From Anaeromyxobacter terrae (GTDB taxonomy: Bacteria; Myxococcota; Myxococcia; Myxococcales; Anaeromyxobacteraceae): a DNA stretch of 64,000 nucleotides. Below the pieces are notes generated by a model, which did no database searches, was not told the DNA's origin, and was given only the letters and a program-made list of their open reading frames with translations. Positions 7,016-18,279 of the stretch are shown piece after piece; the first letter of the stretch is position 1, and each line of letters starts with the position of its first letter. The position numbers were made by a program, and so were the translations under genes. The DNA lies in contig NZ_JALCYY010000022.1 of NCBI RefSeq assembly GCF_022690685.1, positions 1-64,000 of the forward strand, written 5' to 3'.

Positions 7016-10000
7016 ATGTTCGCCGGGATCGTCGCAGCACAACTGCTGTTCTTGACGCAGGGAGTCTGTGCCACGGGGAGTACGCGTACCTGCAAGCTCA
7101 GCGGCTGCGCCGCTGCCGAGCAGGTCTGCCTCGACGGCCGGACGTGGGGCACGTGCACGTGCACGCGCTGCGACGACGCGAACGTGTGCACCGCAGACAG
7201 CTGGGGGGGAACGAGCTGTCGCTACGATCCCGTACCCGTGGAGGACGACGGAGACTCTTGCACGACGGACAGCTGCGATCCCGTCAAAGGGATGCTTCAC
7301 GTCGCAATCGCGGGCTGCACAGTCACGCCTCCCGACCCGTCGACGGTGGCGAGTCCGCTCAGCAGCACGTCCATCACGTCGTTCGCCGATTCGGTAGCGT
7401 TTCTCTACTCGGGAACGAATCGCATCCAGTTCGGTGTCGCTGCCGGCGCGATCGATCTCACGCGTATCGCGGTCGCGCGCGGCAAGGCGCTCTCGAGCGA
7501 GGGCGTTCCGGTTTCGGGCGCGCTGGTGACGATCGTCGGGCGCCCGCAGTTCGGTCATACGTACACCCGAAGCGATGGCAGCTACGACCTCGTCGTGAAC
7601 GGAGGAGAGCAGGTCGTGGCGCAGGTCGCGAAGGCAGGGTTTCTCCCCGCGCACGCGCGGGCTTTCGCACGACCACTGGACTACACGCCTCTCGAAGACG
7701 TCATCTTGCTCCCACACGATGCTAGGGTCACCAGGGTCGCCATGGGGATCTCGGCGACGCAGGTCGCACGTGGCTCGGCGGTCGATGACGGCGCCGGCGT
7801 GCGGCAGGCCACGGTGGTGTTTCCTCCTGGGACCTACGCTGGGATTTCTCTTCCCGATGGGACGAGCCAGCAGCTCTCCACGATGAACGTGCGCTTTACC
7901 GAATACACGGCGACGCCATACGGGAAGAAGGCGATGCCGGGCGAGCTCCCCCCGACCAGCGCCTACACATACGCAATCGAGCTGGGAGCCGACGAAGCGG
8001 TCGCGGCGGGAGCGACCGAGGTCAAGTTCAATCAGGCCGTAGCGATGTACATCGAGAATTACCTAGCGTTCCCCGTGGGCGGACGTGTGCCCGTGGGGTA
8101 TTACGACCGGGCGAAGGGGAAATGGGTCCCTTCGAACGACGGTCGAGTCGTCGCGATCTTGGGCGTGAATGCCGGGCTCGCCGCGCTCGACGTAGACGGA
8201 AGCGGGTTCGAAGCGACCCCGACGCAGCTATCGGCTCTCGGAATCACTGACGCGGAGCGAATCGAGCTCGCCGGCCTTTATCAAGCCGGTCGGAGCCTCT
8301 GGCGCGTGCAGGTGACCCATTTCACACCGTGGGACTGCAACTGGCCCTACGGTTGTAAGGACGCGGACGGCGACGGCAAGCCGGACTGTGCGCAGCCGAA
8401 CGCTCCGCCACCTAAGGAGCACCACGACGACTGCAACAGTACGCAGACGGGTTCGATCATCGAGTGCCAGAACCAAACGCTCGGCGAGAAGGTGTCCGTG
8501 GTTGGGACGCCGTTCGAGCTCTACTACAAGAGCGACCGTGCTTCAGGATACAAGGCGGCGAACACTGCCAGGATCCCAATCACCGGCGCTGTCGTTCCGC
8601 CAGGCCTGCTGAAGATCGAGGTCGAACTCGGGATCGCGGGGCGCAGCTTCAAATACGACTTCGTGCCTCCGTTCTCGCCGGACCAAAGCTTCACGTTCGA
8701 GTGGGACGGAAAGGATGCGTATTCTCGTGAGCTACGGGGAAGAGCGGCGCTGAGCATTCGCATCGGATATTCCTACGATACAGTCTACTTGGAGCCCTCA
8801 GACCGAAACGGTCCGATGAGCTTCGGCGCGCTCTCGGGGAGCGGCGTCTCATTCTCGGCAACCCGGTCCCGCGGCCCCGTCACGATATACCAAGCGTGGA
8901 ACACGTCGTTGGGCGCGTGGGCGCCTCGGGCCGCGGGTCTCGGCGGGTGGGCACTGAGCCCGCACCACGGGTACGACCCGGTCGGTAGAATCGTGTACTT
9001 CGGGGACGGAAAGCAGCGGCGCCTCGCAGAGCTTCCGCCCATCATGACGACGTTCTCGGGCGGGGGCACCGACACCGGCGATGGGATTCCAGCCGGGCAA
9101 GCATCCCTGTCCGCTCCGATCGCCGTCGGCGTGGCACCGGATGGAACCGTGTACATCGGCGACGGTAGCCGAGTGCGAAGGGTCGGGCAGGACGGACTCA
9201 TCACCACGGTCGCTGGAATCGTCGGCACGTGCAGAGAAGCCGGCGAAGGGGGCGCAGCAATCGGCGCCTGCCTGGGTGCAAAGGACGTCGAGGTGGAGGA
9301 GGACGGAGCGCTTCTCGTCGCCGATTATCACGCTTCGGGGGGTCGGTACGTTTCAAGGATCATTCGGATCACACCGGACGGCCTCATCCACATCGTCGCA
9401 GGCAATGGGACCACCGGATTCTCCGGGGATGGTGGGCCGGCGACGCTGGCCATGATCGACCAGCCGTTGACTGCTGTTCGCGGCCCCGACGGGAGCATCT
9501 TCTTCAACGAGTACAGCTGTCGCGTTCGGAGAGTGGATCCCGTCGGAACGATCAGCACCATCGCCGGGACGGGCGTGTGCGGTTCGTCAACCTTCGTCGA
9601 GGGCAGCCGCGCAGCGAGCGTGAGCTTCTTCGCGCGCGGGGCGCAGATCGGGGTTGGGGGCGACGGGAGCGTCTACATCCCGGACTGGGACGGTTCGATG
9701 TACCGTACCTCGCCGTACCTGCGCGTGCTCCGCGTGACGCCGGAAGGCGCGGTCTACACCTTCGCTGGCAACAACGACGACCACGTCACGGGCGATGGGG
9801 GACAGGCACGCCTGGCGGGGGTCGGCTGGGTATTCAGCGTCACTGTCGGTCCAGACGGAAGCGTGTATCTCGGTGAGGGCGACCTGTGGCTTGGGACAGG
9901 GGACAACCTGGTGCGTCGCATCAGGCCCGACGGGGTCATCACGACGCTTGCGGGGAAGTATCAAGGCGGAACGACGCAGGAGGGCGTCGTGGCGACCGAG

Positions 10001-13000
10001 GGCGCCCTCTCGCGCCCCGAGGGCCTCGCAATCGGTCCCGACGGATCCCTGTACGTTGCCTCGTCGTGGTCGAAGAGAGTGAAGAAGGTGGCGCTCCCGC
10101 TCCCGGGGCATGTCGCAGGGAACATCGCGGTCGCGAGCTTTTCGGGGAAGGACCTCTACGTCTTTGATGCTAAAGGGCGGCACCTTCGAACGTTGGACAC
10201 ACGGACCGGTCTGGCGTCACATTCGTTCGCCTACGACTCATCGGGACTTCTCGCATCCATCGCGGACGTCGACGGCAATACGACGCGTATCGAGCGCGAT
10301 GGGCAGGGCTCGCCCGTCGCCCTGCTGGCGCCCAATGGCCAGCGTACCGATTTCGTGGTGGATGCCGACGGGTATCTCAGGAGCGTGGCCAACCCCGCGG
10401 GAGAGGCGACGACGTTCGCATATTTCCCCGGGGGCTTGCTCTCGACCTACGTCGATCCGCGGCAGAACTCACACACGTTTGGCTACGACACTCTCGGCCG
10501 CCTCACCAGCGATGCGAACCCCGCGGGAGGCCTGAAGAACCTCGCCCGATCTGAGCGGACGGACGGTTACACCGTGTCGCTGACGAGCGCGTTCGACGCA
10601 ACCACGTCTCTGGCGTACGTGTACGAGGTCCAGGAAGCAGCTACCGGAGACCGCACGAATACGGACACCGAGCCGGACGGTTCCCAGACGACAACGGTGC
10701 GGACCGCGAGCGGGAGCATGGTCACCACGTTCGCCGATGGGACGGTCGTCAGTACGTCGCAGGCGCCTGATCCACGATTTGGGCTTCACGCGCCGTTAGC
10801 CGCCACCAGCATGTCCACGCCGGGCGGTCTCTCAATGACGACGCTACAGAGTCGTTCCGTCGTCCTTGCCGACCCAAACGACCTCCTGAGCGTGACGTCA
10901 GCCTCAAGCAGTCTTACCGTTAACGGTCGTGCGTTCACGGAGACGTACAACGCGACGACTCGGCGCCTCACCGCGACGACCCCCGCAGGCAGAACAGCAC
11001 GTCGGGTGTTCGATGAGCGGGGGCACGTAGTGCGGCTCGAGCCGGCAGGCTATCCCGCCCTGAACGCGATCACCCTCGCATACGACAGCTCGGGCCGGGT
11101 CACACTTGTCGAGCAAGGCAGCCGTACGCTGGGCATCGCGTACGACAGCGCCGGGCTCCCCAGTACGCTGACAGAGCCGTCGCGCGATCCGGTTCGGCTT
11201 TGGTACGACCTCGCTGGAAGGACCCGGCAAGCGGATCTGCCTGGGAACCGGAGCGTTCTCTACGGATACGACGCGAATGGCAACATGACTAGCATAGAGC
11301 CGCCGGGGCGGACAGCACACGTATTTGGCTTTGACTCGGTAAACAGGCTCGACACATACAATCCGCCGGCAGTTCCGAGCCTCGATCTCACGCCTACTGT
11401 TTATGAGTATGGATTTGATGATGCACTCACGGCCACCCTGCTCCCGGATGGAAGCTCGATTGCCATCACCCATGAACGAGGCGTGACGGGATACTCAACT
11501 GGGCGCATCGGTTCCCTGACCACATGGCGCGGAACCACATCCCTGTCCTACGATCTGGCCGGGCGCCTCGCCGTACTCACGGCGCCTGGGGGAGAAGCCC
11601 TGTCCAAAGGCTACGATGGGGCCCTACTTACTTCCGAGATTTCCACTGGGTCTGTGTCCGGCTCCGTCACGTTCGGCTACGACACTGATCTGCGACTTGC
11701 GACTGTCGCAGTGGACGGGGCTCCGGTCAGTAACAGTTATGACGACGACGGGCTACTGACGAGTGCGGGTCAGCTGTCTATCGTGCGCCATCCAGCGACA
11801 GGGCTCGCCACGTCCACTTCGCTAGGCGTCATCTCTACGGCGCAGTCGTACAATGGGTATGGAGAACTCGAGAGCTTCAGTGCCGCCGCGGGGGCGTCGA
11901 CTCTGTATTCCTACGTGCTCGTTAGCGACACATTGGGGCGCATCTCGTCCAAGACCGAGAACATTGGCGGTGTAACGACAGCATACGACTATGGATATGA
12001 CACCGCAGGGCGGCTCTCCGACGTAACTGTGAACGGGCAGCTTGTCGCGACGTACCTATACGATGCGAACGGGAACCGGCTACAGAAGACGAGCGCCGCT
12101 GGCGTTGAAGAGGGTGCCACAGACGCGCAAGATCGGATGCTCTCCTACGGTAGCGCCACATATACATACGGTCCCAACGGGGACCTGCGGACCAGGGCGG
12201 TCGGAGACGAGATGACAGCATATGCCTACGATCCCTTCGGAAACCTGGTAGCGGTGACGTTGCCCGATGGGACCCAGCTCGACTATTTGGTGGATGCTCG
12301 GAACCGCCGTATCGGCAAGAAGGTAAACGGTCAGTTGGTGGAAGGCTTCCTGTATCAGGATCAACTCAAGCCTATCGCTTGGCTCGACAGCTCTGGAAAC
12401 ATCCGCGCTCGGTTTGTGTACGGAACAGGAGTTAACGTTCCGGAGTACATGCAAACCGTCGATGCCACGTACCGCATCCTGACTGACCACCTCGGCAGCC
12501 CGAGGCTCGTCGTCAACACGAGTAATGGAGCGGTGGCCCAGCGACTCGATTATGACGAGTGGGGACATGTAACGTACGACTCCAACCCCGGATTTCAGCC
12601 GTTCGGGTTCGCGGGAGGGCTCTACGATCGCGACACGGGGCTCGTCAGGTTCGGCGCGAGGGACTACGATCCGCAGACTGGGAGGTGGACGAACAAGGAC
12701 CCGATCCGCTTCGCGGCCGGGCTGAATCTCTACGCGTACGTGGACAACGACCCGGCCAACCGTACTGATCCAAAGGGCCTGTATGGCACGACGAGCTGCG
12801 CGCCGTACGATGCGCGATGTCAGCAAAACGGGCATCCGTACTACTGCGAGATCGCACCGATGTTCTGTGAGTTCTTCCCCAAGAATGAACCAGTGTCAGA
12901 TTGCATGAGGAAGTGCCTGCAGGACTACGACAAGCAACGCGACACGAACGTCTGCGAAGACAAGTCGAATCCCTTCAAGAATCCGGATCCGTCGTTCGAG

Positions 13001-13096
13001 TTCAACCTTCAGTGGGAGCACGAAAGCTGTCTCGCCTCGTGTCTCGCCGACGCCAACGCGAACCCGTTCACTCATCAGTCCCAACCCAATGACTAA
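7016..13096 (+). CDS. secreted Rhs/YD-repeat protein with NHL propeller and Cys-rich C-terminal tip
   Basis: The 2026-residue protein starts with a short hydrophobic leader (about 1-19, ending near GVCA) and a Cys-rich module (about 20-100, including CDDANVCTADS). A carboxypeptidase-regulatory-like beta domain follows near 155-215, NHL-type repeats near 690-1030 (DGTVYIGDG, DGSVYLGEG), and many YD/RHS repeats from about 1080. The Rhs core near 1870-1924 carries DYDPQTGRWTNKDPI and NLYAYVDNDP and ends DPKGLYG. The last 102 residues form a variable tip with nine cysteines, including CMRKC and CLASC. Rhs proteins encapsulate and deliver C-terminal toxins; export and toxin role here are inferred. 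Codon use is visibly richer in A/T third bases than in neighbours. The ATG at 7016 follows AGGGGGGT. The 3' end overlaps the next gene by 8 bases. Confidence 0.9.
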   Translation: MFAGIVAAQLLFLTQGVCATGSTRTCKLSGCAAAEQVCLDGRTWGTCTCTRCDDANVCTADSWGGTSCRYDPVPVEDDGDSCTTDSCDPVKGMLHVAIAGCTVTPPDPSTVASPLSSTSITSFADSVAFLYSGTNRIQFGVAAGAIDLTRIAVARGKALSSEGVPVSGALVTIVGRPQFGHTYTRSDGSYDLVVNGGEQVVAQVAKAGFLPAHARAFARPLDYTPLEDVILLPHDARVTRVAMGISATQVARGSAVDDGAGVRQATVVFPPGTYAGISLPDGTSQQLSTMNVRFTEYTATPYGKKAMPGELPPTSAYTYAIELGADEAVAAGATEVKFNQAVAMYIENYLAFPVGGRVPVGYYDRAKGKWVPSNDGRVVAILGVNAGLAALDVDGSGFEATPTQLSALGITDAERIELAGLYQAGRSLWRVQVTHFTPWDCNWPYGCKDADGDGKPDCAQPNAPPPKEHHDDCNSTQTGSIIECQNQTLGEKVSVVGTPFELYYKSDRASGYKAANTARIPITGAVVPPGLLKIEVELGIAGRSFKYDFVPPFSPDQSFTFEWDGKDAYSRELRGRAALSIRIGYSYDTVYLEPSDRNGPMSFGALSGSGVSFSATRSRGPVTIYQAWNTSLGAWAPRAAGLGGWALSPHHGYDPVGRIVYFGDGKQRRLAELPPIMTTFSGGGTDTGDGIPAGQASLSAPIAVGVAPDGTVYIGDGSRVRRVGQDGLITTVAGIVGTCREAGEGGAAIGACLGAKDVEVEEDGALLVADYHASGGRYVSRIIRITPDGLIHIVAGNGTTGFSGDGGPATLAMIDQPLTAVRGPDGSIFFNEYSCRVRRVDPVGTISTIAGTGVCGSSTFVEGSRAASVSFFARGAQIGVGGDGSVYIPDWDGSMYRTSPYLRVLRVTPEGAVYTFAGNNDDHVTGDGGQARLAGVGWVFSVTVGPDGSVYLGEGDLWLGTGDNLVRRIRPDGVITTLAGKYQGGTTQEGVVATEGALSRPEGLAIGPDGSLYVASSWSKRVKKVALPLPGHVAGNIAVASFSGKDLYVFDAKGRHLRTLDTRTGLASHSFAYDSSGLLASIADVDGNTTRIERDGQGSPVALLAPNGQRTDFVVDADGYLRSVANPAGEATTFAYFPGGLLSTYVDPRQNSHTFGYDTLGRLTSDANPAGGLKNLARSERTDGYTVSLTSAFDATTSLAYVYEVQEAATGDRTNTDTEPDGSQTTTVRTASGSMVTTFADGTVVSTSQAPDPRFGLHAPLAATSMSTPGGLSMTTLQSRSVVLADPNDLLSVTSASSSLTVNGRAFTETYNATTRRLTATTPAGRTARRVFDERGHVVRLEPAGYPALNAITLAYDSSGRVTLVEQGSRTLGIAYDSAGLPSTLTEPSRDPVRLWYDLAGRTRQADLPGNRSVLYGYDANGNMTSIEPPGRTAHVFGFDSVNRLDTYNPPAVPSLDLTPTVYEYGFDDALTATLLPDGSSIAITHERGVTGYSTGRIGSLTTWRGTTSLSYDLAGRLAVLTAPGGEALSKGYDGALLTSEISTGSVSGSVTFGYDTDLRLATVAVDGAPVSNSYDDDGLLTSAGQLSIVRHPATGLATSTSLGVISTAQSYNGYGELESFSAAAGASTLYSYVLVSDTLGRISSKTENIGGVTTAYDYGYDTAGRLSDVTVNGQLVATYLYDANGNRLQKTSAAGVEEGATDAQDRMLSYGSATYTYGPNGDLRTRAVGDEMTAYAYDPFGNLVAVTLPDGTQLDYLVDARNRRIGKKVNGQLVEGFLYQDQLKPIAWLDSSGNIRARFVYGTGVNVPEYMQTVDATYRILTDHLGSPRLVVNTSNGAVAQRLDYDEWGHVTYDSNPGFQPFGFAGGLYDRDTGLVRFGARDYDPQTGRWTNKDPIRFAAGLNLYAYVDNDPANRTDPKGLYGTTSCAPYDARCQQNGHPYYCEIAPMFCEFFPKNEPVSDCMRKCLQDYDKQRDTNVCEDKSNPFKNPDPSFEFNLQWEHESCLASCLADANANPFTHQSQPND

Positions 13097-13478
13097 CGAG
13101 ACTAGGGGCGTACTCCTGGCGCTCGGCGTCTTCGTCGTCGAAGCGACGGCGCTGATCGCGATTGTTTGGGGGGTATGGAGGTCTCGAGGTCCGCTGTGGC
13201 TTCGATGGCTCGTGGGCGCGACAGTCTACGTCGCCTATGCCTCCCTGGCGAGCCGGTGGGTGCCCGTCGTGTGGAGCGGCATGGTGATCGCCGTGTTCGC
13301 CGCTCTCGGGAATGCGCTTCTGTTCGGCGCGCGTTCCGGAGCGCATCGGCCAAGTGAATGGTGGGTCATCGCGATGAGGGCGTGGATCGCTCTTGCCGTC
13401 GTTCCCGCGATCTTCCTATTCATCTCGCGAGCGGTCCTGCGGGGCGTCCGAGCATATCGAAGAACGGGGGCACAGTAG
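13089..13478 (+). CDS. small multi-pass membrane protein overlapping the Rhs gene, candidate immunity protein
   Basis: The 129-residue protein has four hydrophobic segments (about 8-28, 35-55, 60-82 and 93-115) and a basic C-terminus. The ATG at 13089 lies eight bases inside the end of the Rhs gene, the tight coupling typical of toxin and immunity genes. No named family is recognised. If the Rhs tip acts in the periplasm or on the membrane, a membrane-embedded immunity protein would fit; this is inference from position and topology. Base composition matches the Rhs island rather than the core chromosome. Confidence 0.7.
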   Translation: MTNETRGVLLALGVFVVEATALIAIVWGVWRSRGPLWLRWLVGATVYVAYASLASRWVPVVWSGMVIAVFAALGNALLFGARSGAHRPSEWWVIAMRAWIALAVVPAIFLFISRAVLRGVRAYRRTGAQ

Positions 13479-13647
13479 GCGTGCCGCGCCGCCTCCGGGA
13501 GTAAGTCGTGTCCGCGGCTGTGCCGGCAAAGTGCGCGTGAGCGAGCGGGGCATTGAGGATGGCGCGCTCCCGCGAGGTCCTGCGGAGGTCTACCCGTGCG
13601 TTGCGGTCGACTTCAACGGTGAGCATATGGCGGAGGGGCGAGAACGC

Positions 13648-14045
13648 GACCCGGCGGGTCTCTATGGTACAAACGACTGCTGGTTACTACGGCCAGGCGT
13701 GCGCCGCGAATGGCGGCTTCTACGGAGTGCAATGTCGCTCCCGCTGCTTGTAGTGCGTTCCCGCACGAGACAAACGACTGGGGGGATGAAGCCGATCTGC
13801 CGATCGAAAGCCAAGAAGCACATGCAGTCCAGGACTGGGCAGCATGCGTTCGCCAGTGCCTGCAGGAACGGCACAGGGACCGAATGCCCCACCAGAATCA
13901 ATGCCGTGAAGACAACAATATACCACGCGGCGAGAACTTGTCCGATCACGCAGAGTGCATGAAGTCGTGCGGGGAGGACCCGGAGAATCCCTATAGTCCC
14001 GGCGGCCCCCCACTCCCGGACGCGGAGATTCTGCTGTGGAAATGA
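13648..14045 (+). pseudogene. orphan Rhs C-terminal tip broken by two frameshifts
   Basis: Three consecutive frames each match part of the intact Rhs tip. The first reads DPAGLYGT (compare DPKGLYGT). From 13682 the second reads GYYGQACAANGGFY (compare the CQQNGHPYY region). From about 13728 the third reads CNVAPAACSAFP (compare CEIAPMFCEFFP), then CVRQC and CMKSC, and stops at 14045. The twin CX3C motif is retained. The simplest reading is a displaced, duplicated tip cassette that has lost its Rhs body and suffered two indels; sequencing errors are an alternative. A possible internal ATG at 13710 could still express the last 111 residues. It overlaps the next membrane-protein gene exactly as the intact tip does. 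Confidence 0.7.
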
Positions 14046-14503
14046 AACTTCGGCGCACGTCAGCGATGCTCTTGTGGGTTAGCGCGGGTGCGGCGCTACT
14101 TGGGATAGCACTCAACGTCCTCCCTGGATACCGAAATGCCCTCGGCGTCGTCCGATCGGCAACAGACCTATCGATATCCGTTGGCCCGGCACTCGTTTGC
14201 GCAGCGATGCACGCTGGCTGTGCAATACTAGCAAGACGGCGGCAGCCCCCTCGGGGTCGCATCATCGTGCTCTGCGGGATCTACGACGTCGTCGTCGGAG
14301 CGCTAATGTGGGTTCCATGGGCCGGGCTTTGGTTCAGTCTGTTCGCGCCATTCGGGTTCGTGGCTTTCATAGCGGCGTACGGGTCTCGCGGCGTCCAAGT
14401 CCTGAGCTATGCCGCCGCGGCCACTGCTACACTCACGACGGGCATCTGGATCGTGGTGGAGTCCATTCGTTCGCGCGAAAGGCCTGAAAGGGCGCTCGGC
14501 TGA
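14042..14503 (+). CDS. multi-pass membrane protein paired with the orphan Rhs tip
   Basis: A 153-residue protein with four hydrophobic segments (about 10-30, 45-62, 75-105 split by a short loop, and 115-140). The ATG at 14042 overlaps the TGA of the orphan tip as ATGA; a GTG six bases upstream is a possible alternative start. It resembles the 129-residue protein at 13089 in topology and position but not obviously in sequence, which suits immunity proteins matched to different tips. The function is inferred only from that context. Confidence 0.65.
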   Translation: MKLRRTSAMLLWVSAGAALLGIALNVLPGYRNALGVVRSATDLSISVGPALVCAAMHAGCAILARRRQPPRGRIIVLCGIYDVVVGALMWVPWAGLWFSLFAPFGFVAFIAAYGSRGVQVLSYAAAATATLTTGIWIVVESIRSRERPERALG

Positions 14504-14633
14504 GCTGTACACCCTACGGGAAGTGTGGGTTAGGGATTGCGGGCGGCACGTCGGGCTATAGCCCTCCGCGACGGAATCGGCACTTGTACAACCGCGACAA
14601 ACGTTCCACAGGTTGGGAGGGGGAGTGCATCGA

Positions 14634-15398
14634 ATGCGAAGAAGCGAGCTCGTGATCGTCGCGATCATTGCAGGAACCGTTGGCGCCGCGGTTGGAGCGT
14701 CGGGGGCAGTGCTGTGGCAGCGAGGGACGACTCGCCGCATGACGGCCCTGCGGACCGGAACCGCCGGCCAATCGATCAGCCCGTCGCAGATGCCTGCCGC
14801 GACCGGCCCGAGCAGGATCGAGCCGCGATCCGACGACCCGACGCGAGGACCAGCCGTTGCGAAGGTCACACTCATCGAGTTCGCGGACTTCCAGTGCCCG
14901 TTTTCTGCACAGCTACGGCCCACATTGATGCGTTTGCAGCGAGACTTTGGCAAGGACCTGCGCATCGTGTGGAAGCACTCACCCCTCGCATTTCACTCGA
15001 GGGCGATGCCAGCAGCGATCGTCGCTGAATCCGCGCGAGAGCAAGGGAAGTTCTGGGAGATGCATGACAAGCTCTTCACGGATTCCCCGTCACTATCCGA
15101 CGAGGAGTTGTCCTCCGCAGCTGAAGACCTCGGCCTCGACATGACGCGGTTCGTCGACTCGATCCGGACGCAGCGTGACCGGAGCCGGGTCGAGGAGGAC
15201 GCGCGACTAGCAACACTGGTGGGCGCGACCGGTACGCCTACCATCTTCGTGAACTGCAGGCGTGTAACGGGCGCGCAACCGTATGAACAGATGCGCACGA
15301 TCGTGGAACAAGAGTTGATGAAGGCTGAGAAGCTCGCCGAGTCGGGTATACCCCTGGACGAACGGTTCTACGATCGGATCTGCTCCGAGAACCTGTGA
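14634..15398 (+). CDS. membrane-anchored DsbA/thioredoxin-fold protein with CPFS active site
   Basis: A 254-residue protein with an uncleaved-looking N-terminal membrane anchor (about 6-28) and a DsbA-like domain. The nucleophilic cysteine lies in FADFQCPFS (C88), and the cis-proline region GTPT follows later. The second cysteine of the usual CxxC is replaced by Ser91, so classical dithiol oxidase chemistry is unlikely; a monothiol or chaperone-like role is possible. Other cysteines occur in VNCRRV and near the C-terminus (RICSENL). The ATG at 14634 is preferred to an in-frame TTG 21 bases upstream because GGAGGGGGAG lies eight bases before it. It sits inside the Rhs island, next to Cys-rich tips that may need disulphide handling. 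Confidence 0.85.
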
Positions 15399-15406
15399 CG
15401 CCGACG

Positions 15407-15558
15407 GCAATCGACAAGGCCGTCGAGATCAACGTGAGCGAGTTGACGACGCGGCCTCGGTCGCGTCCCTCATGCTCACCACCATGGCGCTCATCGCCGA
15501 GAAGCCGAAGGAGGAGGGCGCGGCCCCGGCCGGCGGCGGGATGGGCGGCATGATGTAG
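15407..15558 (+). pseudogene. relic of a second groEL gene
   Basis: The segment from about 15407 to 15448 matches the intact groEL near 5311-5355 (the IDKAVEI region). It is joined directly to a copy of the groEL 3' end from 15451 (matching 6475 onward), ending in TAG at 15556-15558. The Gly-Gly-Met tail is shorter than in the intact gene. More than a kilobase of internal groEL sequence is missing, so no chaperonin can be made. With the intact groEL at 4957-6600 it brackets the whole Rhs island. Confidence 0.85.
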
Positions 15559-15626
15559 CTCGCCTCCCCGCCGGCGTCGCGCCGCCTCCGCGGCGGCGCG
15601 AACCGCGGGAACGCTCGCAGGATCGA

Positions 15627-15660
15627 GGGGCTGCCGGGAGACCGGCAGCCCCTTTTCCTT
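15627..15660 (+). terminator. rho-independent terminator after the groEL relic
   Basis: The 11-bp stem GGGGCTGCCGG / CCGGCAGCCCC with a GAGA loop is followed by TTTTCCTTT. It is homologous to the hairpin at 6670, but one stem base pair has changed on both sides, so pairing is preserved. Confidence 0.85.
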
Positions 15661-15776
15661 TCGAGTTCCGAGGGGATCGCGATCGGCGCTCGCGCGCAGC
15701 CCCCGGGGGGCAACCCCACGACGCGGACCCCACCTTTCGCGGCACCCGCGGGCTCGGGGGCGCGCACGATGAAGCC

Positions 15777-15983
15777 ATGAAAAAGCGCATCATCAGGACG
15801 AAGTGGGCGACGATCGAACGGCCGGGCGACATCGGGATGGACCTCCCTGCCGGCGTGACCGCGACGCAGCTCAAGCCGACGGACTATCACCCGGTGGACA
15901 TGGAGCAGGCGGCGGCGCCGGCGCCGAAGAAGGCGCGCGTGGTCGCGAAGGTGCGTCGCGCGCTGCACCACTCGCACCGGTAG
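15777..15983 (+). CDS. small basic hypothetical protein
   Basis: A 68-residue frame starting MKKRIIRTKW with an Ala/Pro-rich middle and a Lys/Arg/His-rich C-terminus (KVRRALHHSHR). It restores the high-GC codon pattern after the island. The ribosome site is weak. No domain is recognised and it may be a chance frame, although codon bias supports it. Confidence 0.4.
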   Translation: MKKRIIRTKWATIERPGDIGMDLPAGVTATQLKPTDYHPVDMEQAAAPAPKKARVVAKVRRALHHSHR

Positions 15984-16120
15984 TCGCTTCACGGCGGGTG
16001 TCGCCGCACGCGTTCCCGGCGGTGCCCGCGTCACGGGTCGGGAGATCGGCGCGGAAGTCCGTTCGCGTCGGTGGTCTTCGCGTCATCATCCGACATTCGT
16101 GGGCGCTCCGTCCCGCGGAG

Positions 16121-16567
16121 TCATCTCATCGGCGGGAGCGAGGAGGCCGGCTCGCCCGGGAACAGCGCTCCGACCAGGAGCGCGAACGCCGCGACGACCC
16201 GGTCGAGGAACACGAGCGCCGGCAGGGCGAAGGCGAGCCCCAGCACGAACGCCCAGAGCCGCCGGTGCGCCGTCTCGAGCTGCGTCGCGACGAGCACGGA
16301 GGCGCCGAACATCGCGAGTGTCAGCGTCCCGCCCACGAGGAGCGCCGCCGGCCAGCGCAGTCCGAGGAGGCGCAGCGCGCCCGCGATGGCGACGAGGCCC
16401 GCCGCGTTCAGGAGATCGCGCCCGGTGCCCGCCCACCACGCGCGCTGCTCCTCGTCCCGCAGCCGCAGCCCGATCTCCTGCAGGAGCAGGAACGCGAGCA
16501 CCGCCCCCAGGTACGCGGCGAGGGCGAGGGCGCGGGCCGCTCCGGCGGGCGAGGTGATCGTCCACAC
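16121..16567 (-). CDS. predicted integral membrane protein
   Basis: A 148-residue hydrophobic protein with about four membrane segments (roughly 10-30, 50-70, 75-95, 105-135) and short polar ends. No family is recognised. It begins with ATG at 16567 and is followed at its 3' side only by the 140-base gap to the small gene at 15777. Function unknown. Confidence 0.6.
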   Translation of the reverse strand: MWTITSPAGAARALALAAYLGAVLAFLLLQEIGLRLRDEEQRAWWAGTGRDLLNAAGLVAIAGALRLLGLRWPAALLVGGTLTLAMFGASVLVATQLETAHRRLWAFVLGLAFALPALVFLDRVVAAFALLVGALFPGEPASSLPPMR

Positions 16568-16764
16568 GCTCGAGCTTTACCAGAAGTCGCCGCCCCTCCG
16601 GGCGCGCCCGAACGACCGGCCCCGCCAGGACGGAGCCGGCGGTGAGGCACGGCGCCACGCGCAGGCAGTGAACGCACGCCCGCGCGCCCGGCCGTACCCC
16701 TGCGCAGGCGGATTGAGCCACCGCCGCCGTGGGCGGACGATCTGCATGCGGCGGGAGGTGGAGC

Positions 16765-18279
16765 ATGAGCAGCGCGCGCGGGTTCGCGCTCGTCGCCGTG
16801 GCGCTCGCCGCGGCGGCCTGCGGCGGGGGCGGCAAGAACGGCGGAGACGGCACACCTCAGCCGGTGAGCTACGCGGTGCGCATCGCGCTCACGGGGCCGG
16901 GCGCGGTGGACGTGACGGGCGACGCGACCGGGAGGTGCGAGGCGACGTGCAGCCTGTCCGCGAAGGCGGGCGGACAGGTCGTCCTCACGCCGGTGCCGGG
17001 CGAGGGCGCGACGTTCAAGGGTTTCGGCGGCGCGTGCTCCGGGATCGCTCCGTGCACGCTCGACGTGAACGCGGACCTGGACGTCACGGGGATCTTCGAG
17101 GCGACGCCGGCGCCGGCGGAGGTGACGCTCACGATCGAGCGCACGGGCGACGGCCAGGGTGCCGTCACGAGCGATCCCGCGGGCGTGGCCTGCCAGGCCG
17201 CGGCATGCTCCGGCACCTTCGCGAGCGGCACGCGGGTGACGCTCACCGCGACGCCCGACGCCGACTCTCGCTTCGAGGGGTGGGACGGCGGCGGCTGCAG
17301 CGGGACCGGCACGTGCGAGGTCGTCCTCACCGCCGCGACCACGGTCAGCGCACGCTTCGCCAAGGGTGCGCCGGGGACGTACGCCCTGAAGATCCTCTCC
17401 TACCCAGGAGGCACCCTGTACGCCGCGGGGATCGATGCGAGCGGCGACGTGGCGGGCACGTTCTCGGCGAGCACCTGCTGCGAGTCGCAGGTCTTCCTCT
17501 ACGACGCGGCGGCGGATCGCGTGACGCTCCCCCTGCCCGACCACACCAGCGCGCGCAGCGTGGCGATGAACGACGCGGGCATGCTCCTCGTCATGCTCGA
17601 GGACGGGAAGACCTACCGGTTCCAGGACGGCATCCTGGGGACGCCGCTCGGGCCGATGATGACGGCGCAGGCGCTGAACGTGCGCGGCTGGGCGGCCGGC
17701 TGGGTGGAGGTCGGGCCCGGCCCGCTCCACGCGGCGCTGGACGACGGCACGGCCGTCCGGGACCTCGATCCGGACGGCACCGTCCCGAGCACCGCCAGCG
17801 GCCTCGACGCGGAGGGCCGCGTGGTCGGGACCCGCAACGGCGTGGCGGTGGTGTTCGAGGCGAGCGGCCCGCGCGCCCTCCCGGTGCCTCCGGCCTCGAG
17901 CGCGCTCGACGTGAGCGACACGGGTCTCGTGGTCGGCGCGGCGAAGCGGACGTTCAAGTGGACGGAGCAGGCGTTCGTCTCGGACCTCACGACGGGCGCG
18001 GTCACGCTCATCGATCACCCGAGCGGCACCGTCGGGATGAGCCTCGACCACGTCAACCGCACCGGCACGATCGCCGTCGGCCAGCTGTTCACGAGCGATG
18101 GCGCGGGCGACGCGTTCGTGTACCGGAGCGGGAAGGTCGAGCCGCTCGGCGCGCTCGTGCAGCTCCCCGATGGCACGCGGATCCTGAACGCCGTCGGCGT
18201 GAACGATCGCGGGCAGGTCGTCGTGTCGCTCCGGGACACCCAGGGCACCTGGACGACCGCCATCCTCACGCCGCGGTGA
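16765..18279 (+). CDS. lipoprotein with bacterial beta-repeat and HAF-type repeats
   Basis: The 504-residue protein begins with a lipoprotein signal (ALVAVALAAAAC, lipobox cysteine near 22) and a Gly-rich linker. Two repeats of about 75 residues follow, each with the pattern F-x-G-[FW]...CSG..C (FKGFGGACSG, FEGWDGGGCSG). The second half contains HAF-like repeats, such as VGVNDRGQVV and GLVVG, that suggest a surface beta-propeller-like domain. The ATG at 16765 was chosen because GGGAGGTGG lies just upstream and the signal peptide starts there. It is probably a surface or outer-membrane lipoprotein; the ligand is unknown. It converges with the copper operon. Confidence 0.8.
   Translation: MSSARGFALVAVALAAAACGGGGKNGGDGTPQPVSYAVRIALTGPGAVDVTGDATGRCEATCSLSAKAGGQVVLTPVPGEGATFKGFGGACSGIAPCTLDVNADLDVTGIFEATPAPAEVTLTIERTGDGQGAVTSDPAGVACQAAACSGTFASGTRVTLTATPDADSRFEGWDGGGCSGTGTCEVVLTAATTVSARFAKGAPGTYALKILSYPGGTLYAAGIDASGDVAGTFSASTCCESQVFLYDAAADRVTLPLPDHTSARSVAMNDAGMLLVMLEDGKTYRFQDGILGTPLGPMMTAQALNVRGWAAGWVEVGPGPLHAALDDGTAVRDLDPDGTVPSTASGLDAEGRVVGTRNGVAVVFEASGPRALPVPPASSALDVSDTGLVVGAAKRTFKWTEQAFVSDLTTGAVTLIDHPSGTVGMSLDHVNRTGTIAVGQLFTSDGAGDAFVYRSGKVEPLGALVQLPDGTRILNAVGVNDRGQVVVSLRDTQGTWTTAILTPR

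What the first reader, a model, noticed from the sequence alone, without database searches (positions are those of the whole stretch)
12780..13096. Rhs C-terminal tip with nine cysteines and a twin CX3C pattern
The 102-residue tip after DPKGLYG carries CMRKC and CLASC separated by a conserved middle cysteine. This twin CX3C layout resembles alpha-hairpinin-like disulphide hairpins rather than any Rhs nuclease or deaminase tip I can recognise. The cysteine content and the membrane protein right after it suggest an extracytoplasmic or membrane-active, disulphide-stabilised toxin. The spacing was read directly from sequence; the toxin class is inferred.
Basis: partly seen in the sequence, partly recalled or inferred. 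Interest (0 to 1): 0.8.

Follow-up and report, generated by a model that had tools for sequence, protein, structure and literature searches.

The report
Disulphide-rich warhead of bacterial teneurin toxin
A bacterium carries a close bacterial cousin of the animal nerve-cell protein teneurin, and its tip looks like an unrecognised cysteine-rich toxin, probably held in its shell by one sulphur bond and paired with a membrane protein that protects the maker.

Summary
In detail: a 102-residue tip (12788-13093) with nine cysteines and twin CX3C. The parent is not a generic Rhs protein but a bacterial teneurin-like protein (TLP; 1198 bits to a solved TLP), so the tip is a TLP C-terminal toxin domain. 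Each copy is followed by an overlapping membrane-protein gene: the layout of a toxin/immunity pair plus a displaced older pair. No relative of the tip was found in the collections searched. The solved TLP ties its toxin domain to the FN-plug by one disulphide. That plug cysteine is present here (C473) and in 43 of 45 anchored TLP plugs; all 44 TLP tips counted have a cysteine, 41 an odd number. Nine thus reads as four internal bonds plus a tether. The odd-number rule weakens against length-matched Rhs tips (21 of 30 odd, p = 0.011). The alpha-hairpinin reading fails its published spacing rule; AlphaFold was uninformative (pLDDT 46). Best reading: an extracytoplasmic, disulphide-braced antibacterial toxin with membrane-embedded immunity; its biochemical action is unknown.

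The parts
7016..13096 (+). Teneurin-like protein, 2026 aa: Cys-rich N-terminus (about residues 1-105), TTR-like domain, FN-plug, NHL propeller, YD shell, Rhs core, tip
   Evidence: Pfam TEN_YD-shell 3e-44, TEN_NHL, TTR_TEN1-4, FN-plug_TEN1-4; phmmer 1198 bits to 9pt5, residues 110-1923; G-rich ribosome-site-like run before the ATG (by eye)
8432..8434 (+). FN-plug Cys473, equivalent of BiTLP C719 (the residue bonded to the CTD in the solved structure)
   Evidence: alignment to 9ifo read with PMC13018210; coordinates
8450..8455 (+). Gly479-Ser480, equivalent of the FN-plug cut site G723|S724; followed by Cys484 (8465-8467)
   Evidence: alignment; coordinates; cleavage here not tested
12767..12787 (+). 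DPKGLYG: end of the Rhs core; PxxxxDPxG motif at which the tip would be cut free
   Evidence: TIGR03696 2e-22; alignment to the solved TLP
12788..13093 (+). C-terminal toxin domain (tip), 102 aa, nine Cys, twin CX3C
13089..13478 (+). Putative immunity protein, 129 aa, 3 hydrophobic stretches, net charge +10, no Cys
   Evidence: no family match
13645..14045 (+). Second, displaced and decayed copy of the tip, spread over three frames: 13645-13680 (RDPAGLYGTNDC), 13679-13726, and open frame 13710-14045 with CVRQC and CMKSC
14036..14503 (+). Second membrane protein, 155 aa, 4 hydrophobic stretches, net charge +9; overlaps the end of the second tip as the first membrane gene overlaps the first
14613..15398 (+). 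DsbA-like thioredoxin-fold protein with a hydrophobic N-terminal anchor and a CPFS (one-cysteine) motif; possible helper, link to the tip unproven
   Evidence: Pfam DSBA 1.5e-23; no relative in the fetched stretches of 47 other TLP loci

Best explanation
The feature is the toxin domain (CTD) of a bacterial teneurin-like protein. Shown by sequence: the TLP superfold, both cut-site motifs, the FN-plug cysteine that holds the CTD in the solved TLP, a nine-cysteine tip, a following membrane-protein gene, and a displaced decayed copy of the same tip with its own membrane-protein gene. Inferred: the protein is exported, folds in an oxidising compartment, cuts its tip free at DPKG|LYG and keeps it inside the YD shell; four disulphides brace the tip and the ninth cysteine ties it to C473 of the FN-plug until the shell opens or the bond is reduced; the tip then acts on the target cell from outside its cytoplasm, at or near the inner membrane, and the maker is protected by the integral membrane protein encoded at 13089-13478. 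The chemical action of the tip is not known.
For: TLP identity. CTD tether, and a CTD that harms only when exported, in the one solved TLP: PMC13018210 (Results and Discussion read). Equivalent FN-plug Cys here and in 43 of 45 anchored TLP plugs. Each of 44 TLP CTDs counted has a Cys, 41 odd, against 22 of 62 other Rhs CTDs with none and 25 of 62 odd. In a six-member TLP CTD family the counts 3, 3, 5, 5, 7, 9 are all odd, with three invariant Cys columns and one pair present together in three members. A TLP CTD with seven Cys is a prokaryotic phospholipase A2 (Pfam 5e-9), so disulphide-rich secreted enzymes do occur as TLP tips. Tip and second tip are homologous: score 74, reached by 0 of 5000 full shuffles and 0 of 5000 Cys-fixed shuffles. 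Both copies are followed by overlapping membrane-protein genes. G+C is 59-67% over 7.0-15.5 kb against 73-77% over 15.5-18 kb, which would fit an acquired stretch, though the 2 kb upstream (65-71%) differ little.
Against: No experiment on this tip. Of nine TLP CTDs chosen and tested in the TLP paper only three slowed E. coli. Length-matched Rhs controls (215 aa or less) are also mostly odd: 21 of 30; p = 0.011 for odd, 0.009 for zero, and among CTDs with two or more Cys 17 of 20 against 8 of 12, p = 0.38. With cysteines masked the two tips score no better than shuffles (28 against a mean of 26.7), so their kinship rests heavily on the cysteine frame. 35 of 45 plugs have a second cysteine after the cut, which a one-tether model leaves over. 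L065 and L067 lack the adjacent plug Cys yet have odd tips; L044, L048 and L191 have even tips. AlphaFold gave no confident fold. The signal peptide is weak to the eye (no basic residue before the hydrophobic stretch); no predictor was at hand.
Confidence: 0.6

Rival explanations
1. The tip is a TLP toxin domain but acts inside the target's cytoplasm (an enzyme), the disulphides serving only storage and transit; the membrane proteins block entry, or are not immunity genes.
For: TLP CTDs in PMC13018210 include predicted or tested cytoplasmic enzymes (ART, nucleases).
Against: Nine cysteines kept in a 26%-identical copy; both following genes code for multi-pass membrane proteins; no enzyme family match above cut-off.
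Confidence: 0.2
2. The tip is not a toxin but a disulphide-rich binding or adhesion knob; the membrane proteins are partners rather than immunity.
For: Acidic tip, no catalytic motif found, weak WSC and PAN_3 profile traces (E 0.004-0.11); six of nine TLP CTDs tested in the paper did not slow E. coli, and the paper leaves signalling open.
Against: WSC/PAN_3 traces are far below cut-off; a displaced tip with its own overlapping small gene is the usual mark of polymorphic toxin cassettes (recalled); some TLP CTDs are toxic.
Confidence: 0.12
3. Alpha-hairpinin-like antimicrobial hairpin.
For: Two CX3C units, each within a predicted helix in low-confidence models.
Against: 37 residues between the units (32 in copy 2) with a cysteine inside, against the published CX3CX4-20CX3C; net charge -8; five further cysteines.
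Confidence: 0.05

Closest known systems
Bacterial teneurin-like proteins (BiTLP of Bacillus inaquosorum, PMC13018210; PDB 9pt5/9ifo taken to be it from chain length and the L2144 end)
   Same: Same superfold along about 1800 residues, both cut-site motifs, FN-plug cysteine, short CTD, gene directly downstream
   Different: CTD unrelated: BiTLP's has a predicted transmembrane segment; this one is acidic, without such a segment, with nine Cys; a second decayed CTD cassette follows; an extra FN-plug Cys (484) is absent from BiTLP in the alignment
T6SS Rhs effectors and CdiA/Rhs displaced toxin-immunity cassettes (general features recalled)
   Same: Shell, DPxG cut, exchangeable tip, orphan tip remnant that begins at the DPxG junction
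   Different: Other Rhs CTDs often lack cysteine (22 of 62 controls); the Pfam scan of this protein shows no PAAR or VgrG domain
CDI ionophore toxins (PMC11630599, abstract read)
   Same: Polymorphic tips that act on the membrane potential of the target
   Different: Those are predicted membrane-spanning five-helix bundles; this tip has no hydrophobic stretch
Alpha-hairpinins (PMC11591084, passages read)
   Same: Twin CX3C
   Different: Spacing between the units, extra cysteines, charge; no sequence kinship shown
Phospholipase A2 tip of another TLP (L185)
   Same: Cysteine-rich TLP tip; both have an HxxCxxxC stretch (by eye)
   Different: No His-Asp pair in this tip; profile comparison probability 0.7%

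Membership tests
Bacterial teneurin-like protein (TLP) | FN-plug + NHL + YD-shell superfold | tested here: met
Bacterial teneurin-like protein (TLP) | PxxxxDPxG cleavage motif ahead of a short variable CTD | tested here: met
   motif only, cleavage itself not testable here
Bacterial teneurin-like protein (TLP) | Second cut site in the FN-plug (G|S) with a preceding Cys | tested here: met
   motif only
Bacterial teneurin-like protein (TLP) | Signal sequence for export (predicted in many, not all, TLPs of the paper) | tested here: inconclusive
   one hydrophobic stretch at residues 5-19; no basic residue before it and no clear lipobox by eye; no predictor at hand
Bacterial teneurin-like protein (TLP) | TIP domain between TTR and FN-plug (96% of TLPs in the paper) | not tested
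   no model at hand; that stretch lies inside the 110-1923 match to the solved TLP
Polymorphic toxin/immunity cassette | Small gene directly after the tip | tested here: met
   13089-13478 overlaps by 8 bases
Polymorphic toxin/immunity cassette | Displaced tip remnants downstream | tested here: met
Polymorphic toxin/immunity cassette | Tip toxic, downstream gene protects | not testable with these tools
   needs expression in a laboratory strain
Alpha-hairpinin | CX3C-X4-20-CX3C | tested here: not met
   37 residues with one Cys between the units; rule
Alpha-hairpinin | Helix-loop-helix with two disulphides | tested here: inconclusive
   pLDDT 46
Secreted phospholipase A2 | Profile match and His-Asp pair | tested here: not met
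   no Pfam PLA2 match, hhalign 0.7% to the L185 CTD; His followed by Glu or Ala by eye

The most novel reading that the evidence does not exclude
Bacterial teneurins as a class hold their warhead by a disulphide to the FN-plug: the plug cysteine is near-universal, every tip carries a partner cysteine, extra tip cysteines come in pairs, and the frequent further cysteine just after the plug's cut site could swap the bond and free the tip, a thiol switch for release. The nine-cysteine tip is an extreme case and a toxin family of its own, acting outside the cytoplasm and countered by a membrane protein.
Probability: 0.4. Interest if true: 0.7.

Novelty: new member of a known kind. Interest (0 to 1): 0.5.

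Why it matters
PMC13018210 says that delivery and release of TLP toxins from the shell remain to be elucidated. If the plug-to-tip disulphide is general, the release step becomes testable by removing one cysteine, and it explains why this tip has an odd number of cysteines. The tip itself adds a cysteine-rich toxin family without relatives in the collections searched.

Tried and rejected
Relatives of the tip: none found at the sensitivities used. Own genome with tip 1 (besides itself one weak place, E 0.45, frames of L002 listed, judged chance); 60 relatives with tip 1 (best other E 0.011); 195 genomes of the phylum with tip 2 (best other E 0.004; one further own-genome place at E 0.019; only the first 500 bases of L012 were looked at); genome contigs with A2 (31 pattern stretches, none confirmed by the tool) and with a hand-made degenerate pattern (five hits, all five read and rejected); viral contigs (one hit, read, not a relative; 25 pattern stretches, none confirmed); plasmids with tip 2 and tip 1, phages with tip 1 (no match); 398 genomes of the Pseudomonadota side with A3 (ten places at E 0.0019-0.08; four looked at and judged chance, six not looked at); the fetched TLP loci (none at E 0.1). 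The tools may leave out the window's nearest records.

Structure: two AlphaFold jobs, pLDDT 46 each; no fold search was run on them, since the tool calls matches of low-confidence models meaningless. Solved-structure sequence search with the tip: two chains at E 0.55 and 0.86.

Relatives of membrane ORF 1: three places at E 8e-6 to 0.007, in frames of 385-1009 residues, not followed up. The two membrane ORFs are not convincingly related (E 0.075). A rough hydropathy count of genes downstream of 28 TLPs gave a mixed picture and was not used. A memory that similar tips are common in other Rhs proteins was tested and not borne out.

Limits of the cysteine counts. Controls were the best-scoring Rhs core matches (30 given as loci, 60 picked down the list), not a random draw. 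Of these 90, three were cut by contig ends and left out, nine were moved to the TLP set because their core score exceeded 90, 78 remained, 62 after dropping look-alikes. Five of the 32 TLP tips of that set (L079, L084, L111, L145, L148) are TLPs by core score alone; their plugs were not examined. Of 30 fetched TLP places L052, L064 and L070 had no usable tip. Some tips lie in another frame than the plug, or in a second copy (L053, L168, L181, L191). L165, L166, L183 and L186-L189 gave no tip; a cut second tip of L192 and a 7-residue tail of L181 without Cys were dropped; one of the 14 places was not fetched. Look-alikes were dropped only in the first set. In one search L057 found no anchor and is not in the 45; by eye it has the cysteine. 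Kinship among CTDs was handled only by sequence clustering.

Papers: the supplement of the TLP paper was not open to me, so whether its 139 genomes hold this tip or discuss the plug cysteine's conservation is unknown. In search 100 none of the ten papers listed (25 held three or more terms) had the phrase 'odd number of cysteine'; one search found none; searches were seen as listings. No paper search was made for the tip's own sequence.
Full report
What is there. At the cysteine rate of the rest of the protein, nine or more in 102 has P = 2e-6. The stated start, 12780, is out of frame; the tip is 12788-13093.

What carries it. Pfam finds the teneurin TTR, FN-plug, NHL and YD-shell domains, and the protein matches solved 'teneurin-like protein' chains (9pt5, 9ifo) over residues 110-1923 at 1198 bits; I take these for the Bacillus inaquosorum protein of PMC13018210 from chain length and end point. 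That paper (abstract, Results and Discussion read; supplement not seen) describes TLPs as polymorphic toxins: a variable C-terminal domain of about 15 kDa is cut at PxxxxDPxG, stays inside the YD shell, and in almost all cases has a gene directly downstream, which proved to be immunity in the case tested. In the structure a tip cysteine, C2216, is bonded to C719 of the FN-plug; that tip, when exported but not when cytoplasmic, slowed E. coli, and the exported form made cells permeable to propidium. Of nine further CTDs chosen, three slowed E. coli.

The window protein keeps both cut-site motifs. Its equivalent of C719 is C473 (8432-8434), six residues before G479, where G479-S480 matches G723|S724.

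A second copy. The stretch 13645-14045 holds a decayed relative of the tip in three frames: RDPAGLYGTNDC (13645-13680), AGYYGQACAANGGFYG (13679-13726) and the open frame 13710-14045 with CNVAPAAC, CVRQC, NQC and CMKSC. The open frame and the tip align at 26% identity, E 2e-4 for that one comparison; the score of 74 is reached by 0 of 5000 full shuffles and 0 of 5000 shuffles that hold the cysteines fixed, but with cysteines masked it falls to shuffle level. All seven cysteines of the open frame align with tip cysteines, and the two short pieces carry cysteines where the tip has its first two (by eye). The tip is followed at once by a membrane protein (13089-13478) and so is its copy (14036-14503), each overlapping the tip's frame. 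This is the layout of a toxin/immunity pair with a displaced older pair behind it; immunity is inferred.

Nine as four pairs plus one. I tested whether the plug-to-tip bond could be general. PF24329 hit 29 of 195 genomes of the window's phylum, 4 of 398 on the Pseudomonadota side and 14 of 345 in a third group. A cysteine lies within 16 residues before the cut-site serine in 43 of 45 plugs with a clear anchor; 35 of 45 have another after it. Of 44 usable TLP tips (32 of the first set after dropping look-alikes, 3 and 9 of the others) each has a cysteine; 24 have exactly one, 41 have an odd number; 36 of 39 sequence families are odd. The exceptions are L044 and L048 (two) and L191 (ten). Of 62 other Rhs tips of the same phylum, 25 are odd and 22 have none; for the 32 TLP tips of that phylum against them p = 2e-7 for odd and 2e-5 for none.

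Against this: restricted to Rhs tips of 215 residues or less, 21 of 30 are odd and 5 have none, so p rises to 0.011 and 0.009, and among tips with two or more cysteines the difference (17 of 20 against 8 of 12) is not significant. The presence of a partner cysteine in all 44 tips and of the plug cysteine in nearly all plugs is therefore better support than parity. Within one family of six TLP tips the counts are 3, 3, 5, 5, 7 and 9; three cysteine columns are invariant and two more occur together in three members, as expected if extra cysteines come as bonded pairs.

What the tip does. No family matched above cut-off (a weak PADLOC trace), no relative was found in the collections searched, and AlphaFold gave pLDDT 46 for either copy, with helices over both CX3C units but no trustworthy fold. 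The alpha-hairpinin rule is not met. Phospholipase A2, which is the tip of another TLP (L185), is not met either. The tip is acidic (-8) without hydrophobic stretch; the two membrane proteins are basic (+10, +9). I read it as a disulphide-braced toxin acting from outside the cytoplasm, at or near the inner membrane where its immunity protein would sit; that last step is inference.

Verdict. The parent kind is known; the tip is a new toxin-domain family within it as far as the searches reach, and the plug-cysteine survey extends a single structural observation to a likely family-wide feature.

Noticed in passing
L185 (TLP tip, G679:C13): The tip of this teneurin-like protein matches prokaryotic phospholipase A2 (Pfam PF09056, E 5e-9) with seven cysteines; 'phospholipase' does not occur in the main text of the TLP paper.
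   Followed up: partly
window 8465-8467 and 35 of 45 TLP plugs: A second FN-plug cysteine after the predicted cut site, absent from the solved TLP, is common; its partner is unknown.
   Followed up: partly
L192 FN-plug: The serine at the predicted plug cut site is a cysteine in this TLP (ECRGCVIEA).
   Followed up: no
L168, L191, L192: A second shell-end-plus-tip frame lies in the same stretch as the main TLP, as if tips were displaced by recombination.
   Followed up: no
window 14613-15398: DsbA-like, membrane-anchored protein with CPFS in place of CxxC, after the second membrane gene.
   Followed up: partly
window 12000-15500 against 15500-18000: G+C is 59-65% in the tip region, against 73-77% in the next 2.5 kb.
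   Followed up: no
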